Assembly (NCBI GenBank): GCA_027489245.1
Contig: JAIYAC010000002.1
Location: forward strand, 248,001 to 312,000
Direction of reading: 5' to 3'
Length of the DNA: 64,000 bases
From: Neisseriaceae bacterium
GTDB lineage: Bacteria > Pseudomonadota > Gammaproteobacteria > Burkholderiales > Chromobacteriaceae
Notes under the pieces: generated by a model
Told to the model about the DNA's origin: nothing
Databases searched by the model: none
Seen by the model: the letters and a program-made list of their open reading frames with translations, nothing else
Shown: piece by piece, positions 414 to 62,490 of the stretch
How the letters are laid out: each line of letters starts with the position of its first letter
How positions within the stretch are numbered: the stretch's first letter is position 1
Made by a program: the position numbers and the translations under genes

Positions 414-998
414 CTACCTTGGCGTGTGTGGCGGCTTCCCCTCTATGCCCATCAAGCCGGGCAGGCATTGCGGCCAACCTTGCAGGCGATGATCGTCGCC
501 ATTCAATACCGTGGTGCGGGCGCCGGCGTAGTAGCGCACCGCTTCGCGCCAGTCCAGCACTTCGTCTGCCGTGCCCAGTACCAGCCAATAGTTGGCCGCA
601 TGCAGCTGTGGCGGGCGCAGGGCAAGCAGCTCGTCCATATGCTGGGGCCCCAGCGTGTAGTGTTCGCCGGTATACGGGTTGTGCAGCGGGCCCATGAAGC
701 GTGCCAGGTCTGCCTCGGGGCGGATAGCCGGGTTGATCAGTACCGCAGGCAGGCCAAAGCGCTCGGCCAGCCAGGTGGCGTAATAGCCGCCCAGCGAGCT
801 GCCGATCAGCACCACCGGTTGTTGCAGGCTGGCAATCAGTGCTTCGGTTTGTGCGATGGCTTGGGCCGGGTAAGGCGATAGCTGCGGGCTGCTAAAGCTG
901 GCATCGGGGGCGATGGCGTGCAGATAAGCCTGGGTTTCGCGCGCTTTGAGCGACTGCGGGCCAGACTGGAAGCCATGCAGGTACAGATAGTGGGTCAT
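414..998 (-). CDS. YqiA/YcfP-like alpha/beta-hydrolase (esterase)
   Basis: A 194-residue protein starting MTHYLYLHGFQS, the usual opening of the YqiA esterase family. The nucleophile elbow is GSSLGGYYATW (Ser). The likely catalytic Asp is in GTADEVLDW and the catalytic His in DDHRLQGW. An in-frame ATG lies 24 nt further upstream (1022), but the family start and the core beta-strand favour 998. No signal peptide is visible, so it should be cytoplasmic. YqiA cleaves short acyl esters in vitro; the physiological substrate is unknown. It is convergent with the sensor-kinase gene, with a 12-bp palindrome (393-404) between the two stops. Confidence 0.75.
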   Translation of the reverse strand: MTHYLYLHGFQSGPQSLKARETQAYLHAIAPDASFSSPQLSPYPAQAIAQTEALIASLQQPVVLIGSSLGGYYATWLAERFGLPAVLINPAIRPEADLARFMGPLHNPYTGEHYTLGPQHMDELLALRPPQLHAANYWLVLGTADEVLDWREAVRYYAGARTTVLNGDDHRLQGWPQCLPGLMGIEGKPPHTPR

Positions 999-1063
999 GG
1001 TCAGTAGCTGTTGGGGTGGCAAGCCATCAGCATAGCTGGCTCCGCGCCAGCGTCAACCGCTGG

Positions 1064-1819
1064 CTAGCTGGTTTTCCAGCTATAGCTTTGCACGATGCGC
1101 CGGGTTTTACCCTGTTTTTCCAGCAGGCTGATGGCCTCGTTCAGCTGCGCTACCGAGTAGCGGCTGGCCGGGGCCACGGCGCAGCGTGTTTGCAGCACCG
1201 ACACCACCCACGGCTGCAGGCGTAGCTGCTTGCCAGGCTGAGGGTTGCGCTTTACCCAGGCGGCCAGCTCCAGCTCCGAGCTGACTACCGCGTCGATCAT
1301 GCCCATTTGCAGCGCTTTCAGGCTGGAGTCCAGCTGCGGGTGGTCTACCCGCGTGGCACCACTGTTCTGCCACAGCGGTACCAGCGCCGGGTAGTGGTAG
1401 CCACGTATCACGCCCACGCGCTGCGCGGCCAGGTCCTGGATGCCCTGAATGGTGCGCAGGTGGCTGGCCAGGGTAGCGACCCGCTCGATCTGCGGGTAGA
1501 AGTCTTGCGTCCAGCCCAGCTTGGCCGCATTGCCGAACCAGGCCGGGTTGGCATTGCACACCACATCTACCTTGCTTTGCTCCAGTGCCGATTCGATACG
1601 GTTGCGCGACAGCACGCTGAAGCGGGCGCTGCTGCCCAGCGCCTGCGCCAGCGCCAGACCCAGGTCTTTGGAGAGGCCGCTGTCCAGCTGGCGCTGCGCG
1701 TTCAGTACCACAATCGGCGCAGCGTCGGATTCTGCTACGCCAATGTGTAGCGGGGGGGCGGCCTGGGCCGTGGCGGCGGCCAACAGCAGCCACGCCGGGC
1801 GGCAGAAAAGCGTAGACAT
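1064..1819 (-). CDS. Periplasmic solute-binding protein, SBP_bac_3-like, orphan
   Basis: A 251-residue protein with a signal peptide (STLFCRPAWLLLAAATAQA, cleavage before APPLH). It has the two-lobe pattern of family-3 binding proteins: LHIGVAESDAAP near the start, LSKDLGLALAQAL and VDVVCNANPAWF. The start at 1819 has an AGGGAG Shine-Dalgarno about 7 nt upstream; longer starts at 1837 and 1879 lack one. Such proteins bind amino acids or other small solutes for ABC importers or act as sensors. No permease or ATPase gene is adjacent, so the partner is unknown. It is transcribed divergently from metH. Confidence 0.7.
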   Translation of the reverse strand: MSTLFCRPAWLLLAAATAQAAPPLHIGVAESDAAPIVVLNAQRQLDSGLSKDLGLALAQALGSSARFSVLSRNRIESALEQSKVDVVCNANPAWFGNAAKLGWTQDFYPQIERVATLASHLRTIQGIQDLAAQRVGVIRGYHYPALVPLWQNSGATRVDHPQLDSSLKALQMGMIDAVVSSELELAAWVKRNPQPGKQLRLQPWVVSVLQTRCAVAPASRYSVAQLNEAISLLEKQGKTRRIVQSYSWKTS

Positions 1820-60166: not shown

Positions 60167-61459
60167 ATGCAACGCCTGTCTTCTACCCAAGCCGACTTTG
60201 ACGCCCGCCTGAAAGCCCTGCTGGCGTTTGAAACCGCCCAGGACCCCGCCGTGGATACGGCCGTCGCCGCCATCTGCGAAGACGTGAAAGCCCGTGGTGA
60301 CGCCGCGGTGGTGGAGTACACCAACCGCTTCGACCGCATGAACGCTGCCAGCATGGCCGAGCTCACCCTCAGCCGCGAAGCGCTGCAAGCCGCGCACGAC
60401 CGCCTGCCAGCCCACGTGCGCGACGCACTGCTGGCCGCCGCCGAACGCGTACGCCGCTACCATGAGAAGCAGCTGGCGCATTCCTGGAGCTACGAGGACG
60501 AAGACGGTACCCTGCTGGGCCAGCAAGTCACCCCGCTGGACCGTGTGGGCATTTACGTACCCGGCGGCAAGGCCGCCTACCCCAGCTCGGTACTGATGAA
60601 CGCCCTGCCGGCCAAAGTGGCGGGCGTGGGCGAGATCATCATGGTGGTGCCCACCCCGAACGGCGAACAGAACGACCTGGTGTTGGCCGCAGCCTACATT
60701 GCCGGTGTGGACAAGGTGTTTACCTGTGGCGGCGCGCAGGCGGTAGCCGCCCTGGCTTACGGCACCCAGAGCGTGCCGCAAGTAGACAAAATCACCGGCC
60801 CGGGTAATGCCTACGTGGCCGCCGCCAAGCGCCGCGTGTTCGGCGTGGTGGGCATCGACATGGTGGCCGGCCCGTCCGAGATTCTGGTGATCTGCGATGG
60901 CGACACCGACCCGGACTGGATCGCCATGGACCTGTTCAGCCAGGCCGAGCACGACGAAATCGCCCAGGCCATCCTGCTGTGCCCGTCGGCCGACTACATC
61001 GCCCGCGTGGAAGCCAGCATTGCCAAGCTGCTGCCCGGCATGCCGCGCCGCGCCATCATCGAGCAGAGCCTGGCCAACCGTGGCGCGCTGATCCAGGTAC
61101 GCGACCTGGCCGAAGCCTGCGAAATCTCGAACTACATCGCCCCCGAGCACCTGGAGCTGTCGGTGGCCGAGCCCGACGCCTGGCTGCCCAGCCTGCGCCA
61201 CGCCGGTGCCATCTTCATGGGCCGCTTTACCTCGGAAAGCCTGGGCGACTACTGTGCCGGCCCCAACCACGTGCTGCCCACCAGCCGCACGGCGCGTTTT
61301 GCCAGCCCGCTGGGGGTGTACGACTTCCAGAAGCGCAGCAGCCTGATTCGCGTGTCGCACGCCGGGGCGCAAAAGCTGGGCAAAATTGCCAGCATCCTGG
61401 CGCACGGCGAAGGCCTGACCGCGCACGCACGTGCGGCAGAATTACGCCTGGACGAATGA
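60167..61459 (+). CDS. hisD: Histidinol dehydrogenase
   Basis: A 430-residue NAD enzyme that oxidises histidinol to histidine in two steps. VGIYVPGGKAAYPSSVLMN, the nucleotide segment GNAYVAAAKRRVFGVVGIDMVAGPSE and the zinc/substrate segment QAEHDEIAQAI are typical, as is GPNHVLPTSRTARFASPL. The start MQRLSSTQADF at 60167 has GGAG upstream; the frame is open to 60134. Confidence 0.96.
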   Translation: MQRLSSTQADFDARLKALLAFETAQDPAVDTAVAAICEDVKARGDAAVVEYTNRFDRMNAASMAELTLSREALQAAHDRLPAHVRDALLAAAERVRRYHEKQLAHSWSYEDEDGTLLGQQVTPLDRVGIYVPGGKAAYPSSVLMNALPAKVAGVGEIIMVVPTPNGEQNDLVLAAAYIAGVDKVFTCGGAQAVAALAYGTQSVPQVDKITGPGNAYVAAAKRRVFGVVGIDMVAGPSEILVICDGDTDPDWIAMDLFSQAEHDEIAQAILLCPSADYIARVEASIAKLLPGMPRRAIIEQSLANRGALIQVRDLAEACEISNYIAPEHLELSVAEPDAWLPSLRHAGAIFMGRFTSESLGDYCAGPNHVLPTSRTARFASPLGVYDFQKRSSLIRVSHAGAQKLGKIASILAHGEGLTAHARAAELRLDE

Positions 61460-61509
61460 AAATTTAACGAAACTGGCCTACGCTCCAAAGCACAAGGAGC
61501 CAAACGCCA

Positions 61510-62490
61510 ATGACACGTTATCTGGCCAGACTCTGTCTGGCCTTTCTTTTTGCCCAAGCCCACGCCGCTGCCCCCACGGTATTGTTAGTGGACAGCTATC
61601 ACGCGGGCTACGCCTGGAGCCAGGCATGGCGCAGCGCGCTAACGCGCACACTGGGCAGCTCGGTACGGCTTTCCTATGTCGAACTCGATAGCAAGCGCCA
61701 GCCGCGCGACCAGATGGAGCCGCGTGCCGAGCAGGTGTTGAGCCAGATCCGGCGTCAGCAACCAAGCTTGGTGGTGGTGGCGGACGACGCGGCATTGCGC
61801 TTTGTCGGTACCCGCCTGGCCGGCAGCCAGACGCCGGTGGTGTACCTGGGCATCAACCAGAACCCGCGCCATTATCTGCCCGACCATGCGGCCAACGTGA
61901 TCGGCGTGCTGGAGCGGCCGCTGATACGCCGTAACGTGAGCCTGATGCGCCAGATGGTGCCGGGTATACAGCGTGTCTTGCTGCTGTTTGATAATGACCT
62001 GACCTCGGAAGTGCTGCAGGACGAGCTGTTCGGCCGCGCCAGCAGCCTGCAGGATGGCAGCGTGCAGATCGACCTGGTGCGCGCCATTGACTACGCCGAC
62101 TGGCAGCGCCAGGTCAGCCAGGCTGGTAGCCGCTATCAGGCGATCTGGACCGGCCTCTACCAGACCCTGCGCGACAGCAACGGCAAAGTCGTGCCCGATA
62201 GTGAGGTCATCGCTTGGACGGCGGCCAACAGCAAGCTGCCGCTGTTTGCGTTCTGGGATTTTGCCATCGGGGCGGACAAGGCCATTGGCGGGCTGGTGTT
62301 GTCCGGTAGCGACCAGGGCAGGTTGGCCGCAGGCCTGGTGCAGCAGATCCTGTTTCAGCGCCGCCAGCCCGGCAGCCTGTTTCCGCTAAACGGCGGCAGT
62401 GGCCGGCTACTGTTCAGCCGCCGTGCGCTGCAGCGTTTTGGCCTGACCCTGCCGCCCGCCTGGGCCGGGCAAGTGCAGCTGATCGAGTAG
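61510..62490 (+). CDS. ABC-type sugar/sensor binding protein (PF04392-like), inside the his operon
   Basis: A 326-residue periplasmic protein with a signal peptide (TRYLARLCLAFLFAQAHA, then AAPTVLLVDSYHAGYAWS). The body resembles the ABC-substrate-binding family often fused to sensor proteins: VVVADDAALRFVGTRLAGSQTPVVYLGINQNP and AFWDFAIGADKAIGGLVLSGSDQGRLAAGLVQQIL. No permease or ATPase is nearby. It breaks the usual hisG-D-C-B order on the same strand. It carries a full repeat copy at 62320-62331. Confidence 0.7.
   Translation: MTRYLARLCLAFLFAQAHAAAPTVLLVDSYHAGYAWSQAWRSALTRTLGSSVRLSYVELDSKRQPRDQMEPRAEQVLSQIRRQQPSLVVVADDAALRFVGTRLAGSQTPVVYLGINQNPRHYLPDHAANVIGVLERPLIRRNVSLMRQMVPGIQRVLLLFDNDLTSEVLQDELFGRASSLQDGSVQIDLVRAIDYADWQRQVSQAGSRYQAIWTGLYQTLRDSNGKVVPDSEVIAWTAANSKLPLFAFWDFAIGADKAIGGLVLSGSDQGRLAAGLVQQILFQRRQPGSLFPLNGGSGRLLFSRRALQRFGLTLPPAWAGQVQLIE

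What the first reader, a model, noticed from the sequence alone, without database searches (positions are those of the whole stretch)
469..62331. Dense dispersed repeat GTTGGCCGCA (AGGTTGGCCGCA): probable new DNA-uptake-type sequence
By eye I count about 25 plus-strand and 23 minus-strand exact copies of GTTGGCCGCA in 64 kb, about one per 1.3 kb; 15 extend to AGGTTGGCCGCA. With this base composition under one exact copy is expected. Plus-strand examples: 591, 5687, 17568, 17755, 18793, 21052, 21534, 22758, 23231, 26236, 31547, 34248, 34435, 40496, 42341, 42366, 42529, 46967, 52463, 54525, 56023, 56626, 59527, 60682, 62322. Minus-strand: 469, 5099, 10900, 12111, 15678, 15927, 17314, 20332, 27167, 27912, 32895, 34168, 38262, 40685, 44537, 45300, 47958, 50963, 51590, 57412, 57847, 60123, 61887. 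Strand balance argues against Chi or KOPS. Many copies lie just past stop codons, and inverted pairs form hairpins. Genic copies occur in more than one frame and often use TTG for Leu where neighbours use CTG. Neisseriaceae DUS have this layout, but the DUS dialects I know share a CTGAA-type core unlike this one. Ala-Ala-Asn coding bias could add some copies.
Basis: partly seen in the sequence, partly recalled or inferred. Interest (0 to 1): 0.93.

Follow-up and report, generated by a model that had tools for sequence, protein, structure and literature searches.

The report
CCG-core DNA uptake sequence in Vogesella
A ten-letter DNA tag occurs about 2,300 times in this bacterium's genome, and related genera that carry close variants of the tag also carry a homologue of the Neisseria DNA-uptake pilin; the tag is likely a password by which the cell prefers DNA of its own kind, and its core letters differ from those of the published Neisseria passwords.

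Summary
The window has 51 exact GTTGGCCGCA (0.64 expected), the genome 2,301, equally on both strands. Codon bias does not explain it: in 464 kb, 239 genic copies stand against 8.3 after synonymous shuffling. The genome is a Vogesella (Chromobacteriaceae). All 13 genomes of the genus carry 1,871-2,895 copies and a ComP-like minor pilin; the window genome's own has Neisseria ComP as best solved relative by sequence, and a 91% identical one by predicted fold. Ten genomes of six other genera in the family carry sister motifs, GTTGGCCGAA or GTTGGCCGAG; extended, AGGTTGGCCGAA matches two published DNA uptake sequences (DUS) of Neisseriaceae at 9 of 12 positions. The remaining 38 of 61 genomes of the family lack all three.

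Best reading: a DUS-type self-recognition system read by ComP, with core CCG where all eight dialects of Frye et al. keep CTG. They found no DUS in five genomes around Chromobacterium and dated its origin after that split. Uptake and binding are untested. Against simple transfer of the Neisseria model, these ComPs mostly have two cysteines, not four, and most are near-neutral. I rate it a new variant of a known kind, readily testable.

The parts
469..478 (-). GTTGGCCGCA copy, AGG-extended (12-mer 469-480)
591..600 (+). GTTGGCCGCA copy
5099..5108 (-). GTTGGCCGCA copy
5687..5696 (+). GTTGGCCGCA copy, called intergenic; directly preceded by GCGGCCAAC (inverted 9-base partner)
10900..10909 (-). 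GTTGGCCGCA copy
11587..11596 (+).
12111..12120 (-). GTTGGCCGCA copy
12831..12840 (+).
15678..15687 (-). GTTGGCCGCA copy, AGG-extended
15927..15936 (-). GTTGGCCGCA copy
16351..16360 (+).
17314..17323 (-). GTTGGCCGCA copy
17568..17577 (+). GTTGGCCGCA copy, called intergenic
17755..17764 (+). GTTGGCCGCA copy, called intergenic, AGG-extended
18793..18802 (+). GTTGGCCGCA copy, called intergenic
20332..20341 (-). GTTGGCCGCA copy, called intergenic
21052..21061 (+). GTTGGCCGCA copy
21534..21543 (+). GTTGGCCGCA copy
22758..22767 (+). GTTGGCCGCA copy
23231..23240 (+). GTTGGCCGCA copy, called intergenic, AGG-extended
26236..26245 (+). GTTGGCCGCA copy
27167..27176 (-). GTTGGCCGCA copy, called intergenic, AGG-extended
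27912..27921 (-). GTTGGCCGCA copy, AGG-extended
31547..31556 (+). GTTGGCCGCA copy
32895..32904 (-). GTTGGCCGCA copy, called intergenic
34168..34177 (-). GTTGGCCGCA copy, AGG-extended
34248..34257 (+). GTTGGCCGCA copy
34435..34444 (+). GTTGGCCGCA copy
38262..38271 (-). GTTGGCCGCA copy, AGG-extended
40496..40505 (+). GTTGGCCGCA copy, called intergenic
40685..40694 (-). GTTGGCCGCA copy
42341..42350 (+). GTTGGCCGCA copy, called intergenic
42366..42375 (+). GTTGGCCGCA copy, called intergenic; followed by GCGGCCAACC (inverted 9-base partner)
42529..42538 (+). GTTGGCCGCA copy, AGG-extended
44537..44546 (-). GTTGGCCGCA copy, called intergenic, AGG-extended
45300..45309 (-). GTTGGCCGCA copy
46967..46976 (+). 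GTTGGCCGCA copy, on the border of a called gene (46329-46967)
47958..47967 (-). GTTGGCCGCA copy, called intergenic
50963..50972 (-). GTTGGCCGCA copy
51590..51599 (-). GTTGGCCGCA copy, called intergenic, AGG-extended
52463..52472 (+). GTTGGCCGCA copy, called intergenic
54525..54534 (+). GTTGGCCGCA copy, called intergenic, AGG-extended
56023..56032 (+). GTTGGCCGCA copy, AGG-extended
56626..56635 (+). GTTGGCCGCA copy
57412..57421 (-). GTTGGCCGCA copy
57847..57856 (-). GTTGGCCGCA copy
59527..59536 (+). GTTGGCCGCA copy
60123..60132 (-). GTTGGCCGCA copy, called intergenic, AGG-extended
60682..60691 (+). GTTGGCCGCA copy
61887..61896 (-). GTTGGCCGCA copy
62322..62331 (+). GTTGGCCGCA copy, AGG-extended

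Best explanation
GTTGGCCGCA is likely the DNA uptake sequence of the genus Vogesella, a self-recognition tag that is predicted to be bound by a ComP-like minor pilin on the type IV pilus, so that the cell would prefer DNA of its own species during natural transformation. Shown here: the excess, its spread over both strands and over genes and intergenic DNA, its presence in all 13 genomes held for the genus, sister motifs in six related genera, and a ComP homologue in every genome with a motif. Inferred: that ComP binds the motif, that binding raises uptake, and that repeated uptake and recombination of tagged DNA built up the copies, as is thought for Neisseria. The dialect family of Chromobacteriaceae (AGGTTGGCCGCA, AGGTTGGCCGAA, AGGTTGGCCGAG) is read as homologous to the Neisseriaceae dialects, with core CCG in place of CTG at positions +6 to +8; that homology, too, is inferred.
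For: Excess: 2,301 copies genome-wide, strands equal. Genic copies 239 against 8.3 +/- 2.7 (largest 16) in 200 synonymous-codon shuffles of 464 kb. Positions +3 to +9 are strict: no single-base variant there exceeds 5 copies, against 340 for the motif; +10 is relaxed, with C 54, G 56, T 22. Spacing is more even than random (CV 0.84; 4 gaps of 5 kb or more where 8.7 were expected, none of 8 kb or more where 0.97 was expected). Genus: 13 of 13 genomes have ComP at 182.7-250.1 bits and 1,871-2,895 copies; 48 of 48 genomes of other genera of the family have at most 58. Sister motifs: GTTGGCCGAA 183-2,168 copies in 8 of 61 genomes, at most 78 in the other 53; GTTGGCCGAG 1,590 and 1,940 in 2 of 61, at most 165 in the other 59. 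Each of the 23 motif-bearing genomes has a ComP match of 87.2 bits or more; none of the other 38 exceeds 86.5. The best PDB sequence matches are ComP for the window genome's protein and for a GTTGGCCGAA genome, G340, whereas the genome's own PilE-like pilin matches PilE first. Predicted fold of the 91% identical L005 protein (pLDDT 91.6): the three best Foldseek matches in the PDB library are Neisseria ComP. The tree sets these ComPs, the seven homologues from motif-free genomes of the family and five Neisseriaceae ComPs apart from four other pilins at 100/100. AGGTTGGCCGAA shares 9 of 12 with two of seven published dialects compared, reached by 0.4% of shuffles in register and 1.0% with both strands and shifts. 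DprA is present, as are PilM and PilQ near comP; ComEC is in 11 of 13 genomes of the genus.
Confidence: 0.8

Rival explanations
1. It is an uptake sequence, but the receptor is another pilin, for instance the FimT/GspH-like pilin encoded directly upstream of comP, and the resemblance to Neisseria DUS is convergent.
For: FimT binds DNA in Legionella through a C-terminal GRxR motif (PMC8897410 passages). The FimT-like gene lies directly upstream of comP in Vogesella and at the head of the pilin gene row that ends with comP in G341. GRxR is present in 5 of 6 fimT-like genes examined from motif-bearing genomes outside Vogesella and in 0 of 4 from motif-free genomes. Most CCG-group ComPs are not basic.
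Against: The Vogesella FimT-like proteins examined lack GRxR (GFRH or GFRQ in three), as does that of G348. No sequence selectivity is reported for Legionella. The in-register similarity of the motif to DUS would be chance.
Confidence: 0.14
2. A chromosome-maintenance or methylation motif (Chi, KOPS, HIP1-like, nucleoid protein site).
For: High density over the whole genome.
Against: Strands are balanced overall and nearly so in each of five pieces (28/23, 64/76, 29/31, 13/17, 35/24), unlike the strand-biased Chi and KOPS (recalled). The motif is not palindromic. Copies are enriched outside genes and towards gene 3' ends. The motif changes at +9/+10 between genera, and 38 of 61 genomes of the family lack it. 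Orientation was not tested against mapped replichores.
Confidence: 0.04
3. A by-product of codon or protein composition (Leu-Ala-Ala, Ala-Ala-Asn).
For: 183 of 239 genic copies use the frame that reads LAA or AAN.
Against: Synonymous shuffling leaves 8.3 copies; all six frames are used; density is 3.4 times higher between genes; 38 of 61 genomes in the family lack all three motifs.
Confidence: 0.005
4. Transcription terminators or mobile hairpin repeats (REP-like).
For: 19 of 23 close pairs are inverted, and 16 of these 19 have a called gene 3' end within 50 bases.
Against: The close pairs involve only a small share of the 340 copies; single copies in the window have unrelated flanks, so no larger mobile unit is copied. 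In Neisseriaceae, too, paired DUS are found as dyads (PMC3630211 passage).
Confidence: 0.01

Closest known systems
DNA uptake sequence (DUS) dialects of Neisseriaceae (Frye et al. 2013, PMC3630211)
   Same: 10-12 bases, 943-5,918 copies per genome in the paper, dyad pairs, dialects by group, AG at -2/-1 as in AG-DUS, G at +1, +4 (in most dialects) and +8, C at +6, AA or CA at +9/+10 in two of the three dialects, ComP homologue present.
   Different: Core +6 to +8 is CCG, not CTG; G at +5; one dialect ends in AG; host family Chromobacteriaceae. Frye et al. found no obvious DUS in the five genomes of Laribacter, Lutiella, Pseudogulbenkiania and Chromobacterium that they examined.
ComP, the DUS receptor (Pfam PF16732; PDB 5HZ7, 2M3K, 2NBA)
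   Same: Class III pilin leader, WPxLP region, pilin fold whose best Foldseek matches in the PDB are ComP.
   Different: Two cysteines in 17 of 19 CCG-group ComPs (four in 4 of 5 Neisseriaceae ones), shorter C-terminal region, lower charge in most, and an N-[TVA]-D-x-G loop in 17 of 19, 0 of 16 others.
Uptake signal sequence (USS) of Pasteurellaceae
   Same: Works alike: dispersed self-tag for DNA uptake.
   Different: Unrelated motif (recalled) and a different predicted receptor, ComN/PpdA (PMC12616744, seen in listing with start of abstract only).
FimT of gammaproteobacteria (PMC8897410, passages)
   Same: Minor pilin that binds DNA; a GspH/FimT-like gene lies beside comP.
   Different: No sequence preference reported for Legionella; the Vogesella copies examined lack GRxR.

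Membership tests
Neisseriaceae DUS | Short motif in great excess genome-wide, both strands | tested here: met
Neisseriaceae DUS | CTG at +6 to +8 in every dialect (PMC3630211; also used as criterion in PMC11316581) | tested here: not met
   Core is CCG. The CTG variant GTTGGCTGCA has 0 copies in 464 kb, 2.5 expected. So it is not filed as a CTG-core DUS, but as a DUS-type variant.
Neisseriaceae DUS | A at +10 in every dialect | tested here: inconclusive
   Met in the CCGCA and CCGAA dialects (in Vogesella +10 is the loosest position), not met in CCGAG
Neisseriaceae DUS | comP in the same genome | tested here: met
   23 of 23 motif-bearing genomes have a ComP match of 87.2 bits or more
Neisseriaceae DUS | Motif raises DNA uptake or transformation | not testable with these tools
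   bench assay needed
ComP | Pfam ComP_DUS over cut-off and prepilin leader | tested here: met
   32.4 bits, cut-off 27.3; N_methyl 31.8. Weak discriminator: the PilE-like pilin scores 80.6.
ComP | Closest solved relative is ComP by sequence and fold | tested here: met
   Sequence; control pilin gives PilE first. Fold, on the 91% identical L005 protein:
ComP | Two disulphides (four cysteines) | tested here: not met
   Two cysteines in the soluble part of the window genome's ComP; one of five Neisseriaceae homologues, L084, also has two
ComP | Electropositive DNA-binding patch | tested here: inconclusive
   Net charge +2 of the soluble part against +6 to +7; surface patch not computed
ComP | Binds its DUS | not testable with these tools
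   bench assay needed
Chi / KOPS | Strand bias along the replichore | tested here: inconclusive
   1,158 / 1,143 genome-wide and near balance in each piece speak against it; replichores were not mapped

The most novel reading that the evidence does not exclude
The ComP-DUS self-recognition system is older than the family Neisseriaceae: it was already present in the common ancestor with Chromobacteriaceae, was lost in Chromobacterium, and has split into a CTG branch and a CCG branch. The supposedly invariant, essential core letter thus changed in evolution, together with the ComP loop (N-x-D-x-G) and the second disulphide, which gives a natural double mutant of tag and receptor for solving how ComP reads DNA.
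Probability: 0.5. Interest if true: 0.87.

Novelty: new variant of a known kind. Interest (0 to 1): 0.8.

Why it matters
In the papers seen here DUS are described for Neisseriaceae, always with a CTG core, and ComP is said to be restricted to that family (PMC8897410 passage); any single change tested in the core abolished transformation (PMC12061091 passage). A whole set of sister dialects with CCG, each with a ComP homologue, would move the origin of DUS back, show that the core can change, and supply matched tag-receptor pairs outside the pathogens. How ComP reads DUS is called enigmatic in the same paper, and these pairs would make it directly testable by comparing tags, loops and species. 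It would also give a practical handle for transforming Vogesella and its relatives.

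Tried and rejected
Codon bias: rejected. Chi/KOPS: judged unlikely on strand balance. Rfam: no RNA family in the window at gathering threshold. 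Pfam ComP_DUS as sole marker: rejected, since it ranks the PilE-like pilin first. Other families of the order: 20 stretches (one of 9.2 kb, one of 16.9 kb, 18 of 20 kb) from 20 genomes of 16 families showed no DUS-like 9-mer (top counts 9 or less) and at most 4 copies of GTTGGCCG each; 20 kb would miss a sparse motif. Motif-free genomes of the family: 120 kb each of G332, G253 and G342, 80 kb of G336 and 60 kb of G347 gave no DUS-like top 10-mer; a tandem-like repeat leads in G336 and, by my reading, tRNA parts in G253. The other 33 motif-free genomes were only counted for the three motifs (a few also seen in one 20-kb stretch), so a different tag there is not excluded. In 20 kb alone G339 and G351 did not show the motif on top, although whole-genome counts are 579 and 893. 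Exact inverted pairs in the window: one orientation searched, none within 30 bases. Literature: searches (full text of the held PMC library); in the rows listed (25 of 72, 20 of 152, 0 of 0, 25 of 157, 5 of 5, 15 of 16, 7 of 7, 20 of 34) I saw, by title and start of abstract, none that describes these motifs as uptake sequences. Vogesella with 'DNA uptake sequence' gave 0 papers. The one match for CTCGGCCAAC in a DUS paper is inside a cloning primer. Unlisted rows, most subscription papers and the supplement of Frye et al. (its Table S1D lists over-represented 10-mers of five relatives) were not seen.

Full report
Observation. The window holds 51 exact GTTGGCCGCA, 28 on the plus and 23 on the minus strand, against 0.64 expected, and 15 AGGTTGGCCGCA. 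All 48 places in the finding are right; three were missed. It ranks first among the over-represented 10-mers of the window. The genome (3.51 Mb, 26 contigs, 88% complete) has 1,158 forward and 1,143 reverse copies; the same letters read backwards occur 6 times.

What the motif is like. I took 400 kb more of the genome, 464 kb with the window, with 340 copies. Genes were called with a simple hexamer score of my own, so gene borders are approximate and some genes are missed. 239 copies lie in called genes, 100 between them and 1 on a border: 0.58 and 1.99 per kb. Shuffling synonymous codons within each gene leaves 8.3 +/- 2.7 of the 239 (largest 16 in 200 shuffles). All six frames are used, 122 sense and 117 antisense, mostly (183) the frame that reads Leu-Ala-Ala or Ala-Ala-Asn; 144 of 163 Ala-Ala-Asn tripeptides are written GCG GCC AAC (19 expected) and 89 of 462 Leu-Ala-Ala as TTG GCC GCA (2.3 expected). 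Of 23 neighbouring pairs within 60 bp (14.4 expected at random), 19 are inverted, six of them as the 20-base palindrome TGCGGCCAACGTTGGCCGCA, and 16 of the 19 have a called gene 3' end within 50 bases. Copies are spaced more evenly than chance. Positions +3 to +9 tolerate almost no change, +10 tolerates any base, and A-G is favoured at -2/-1. This is the anatomy of an uptake sequence, not of a Chi-like, codon-driven or mobile repeat.

Who has it. A scan of named genomes with the ComP alignment gave 8 loci, six of named Vogesella species, one of a bacterium called L13 and one MAG labelled Neisseriaceae; in all 8 GTTGGCCGCA is the top 10-mer, with 9 to 15 copies in 15-20 kb. All eight ComPs are, as printed (up to the last 140 residues), those of genomes in the window's own genus (L005=L013, L006=L016, L007=L017, L008=L021, L009=L019, L010=L018, L011=L020, L012=L023), so the genus is read as Vogesella, family Chromobacteriaceae. 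In 300 genomes of the order, only the 4 of this genus have more than 52 copies. In the 61 genomes held for the family, the 13 of the genus have 1,871-2,895 and the other 48 at most 58. In the locus stretches the AGG extension is seen in the V. indigofera group (L009-L012) but not in L005-L008.

Sister dialects. De novo 10-mers in single 20-kb stretches of relatives showed GTTGGCCGAA in G341, G340, G117, G348 and G349 and GTTGGCCGAG in G337 and G338; three genomes of another family, f44, served as positive controls and gave the known DUS GCCGTCTGAA (two) and GCAGCCTGAA with its overlap GGCAGCCTGA (one), so f44 is read as Neisseriaceae. Whole-genome counts: GTTGGCCGAA 1,368 (G117), 579 and 2,168 (G339, G340), 1,245 (G341), 1,851 (G348), 1,104, 183 and 893 (G349-G351), at most 78 elsewhere; GTTGGCCGAG 1,940 and 1,590 (G337, G338), at most 165 elsewhere. 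With Vogesella this makes 23 of 61 genomes in seven genera. In longer stretches the leading 12-mers include AGGTTGGCCGAA in G341, G340, G348, G117 and G349 and AGGTTGGCCGAG in G337. Thirty-eight genomes lack all three: 19 of genus g2, 9 of 10 of g3, 4 of g135 and 6 of g139. G332 of g2 is 4,751,080 bases long, the length of C. violaceum ATCC 12472 as I recall it; other genus names are not known to me from any call.

Relation to DUS. Frye et al. (PMC3630211; sections on dialects and phylogeny read, passages) list eight dialects, all with CTG at +6 to +8 and A at +10, found no obvious DUS in Laribacter, Lutiella, Pseudogulbenkiania and two Chromobacterium genomes, found no ComP in C. violaceum by BLAST, and place the origin of DUS after the split from C. 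violaceum. AGGTTGGCCGAA equals AG-simDUS and AG-mucDUS at 9 of 12 positions; 0.37% of shuffles reach that in register and 0.99% with both strands and shifts allowed; for AGGTTGGCCGCA it is 8 of 12, 1.6% and 7.8% (seven dialects compared). The core differs in one letter, CCG for CTG.

Against the reading. Most CCG-group ComPs are not basic and most have half the cysteines, so the published mode of binding cannot simply be carried over. ComP homologues exist without a tag, as in G332. ComEC was not found in this incomplete genome, but is in 11 of 13 of the genus. A FimT-like pilin beside comP is a rival receptor. The loop signature was found after looking, and kinship confounds it.

Verdict. I judge the motif a DUS-type uptake sequence at about 0.8, with ComP the most likely receptor. 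It fails the CTG criterion, so it is a new variant, not a member, of the published DUS set. I saw no paper that describes it among the rows listed; most subscription literature was not seen.

Noticed in passing
L069, L070, L071, L072, L074 (fimT-like genes) against L075, L076, L080, L081: The FimT-like pilin gene near comP carries a C-terminal GRxR in 5 of 6 motif-bearing genomes examined outside Vogesella and in 0 of 4 motif-free ones, as if competence decayed together with the tag; three Vogesella copies have GFRH or GFRQ.
   Followed up: partly
L078:9851-10261 (G332, by its length C. violaceum): A ComP homologue whose best solved relatives are Neisseria ComP is present, in contrast to the published negative BLAST search.
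   Followed up: partly
G000 contigs C3, C17, C1: Six exact 20-base palindromes TGCGGCCAACGTTGGCCGCA in 464 kb, each with a called gene 3' end within 30 bases of its midpoint.
   Followed up: no
window: The palindrome GGCTAGCC is over-represented (count 12 on both strands together, 1.4 expected), cause unknown.
   Followed up: no
L083 (G336, genus g135): TCAGGGTAAA occurs 6 times in 20 kb (0.03 expected); CAGGGTAA is also raised in the window (12 against 2).
   Followed up: no
G000 and G306: No ComEC match in either genome although 11 of 13 of the genus have one; G300 has it in two pieces.
   Followed up: partly
G308 and G348 ComP (L025, L082): The only two of 19 CCG-group ComPs without the N-[TVA]-D-x-G loop; G348 also has the longest end branch of the tree.
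   Followed up: no
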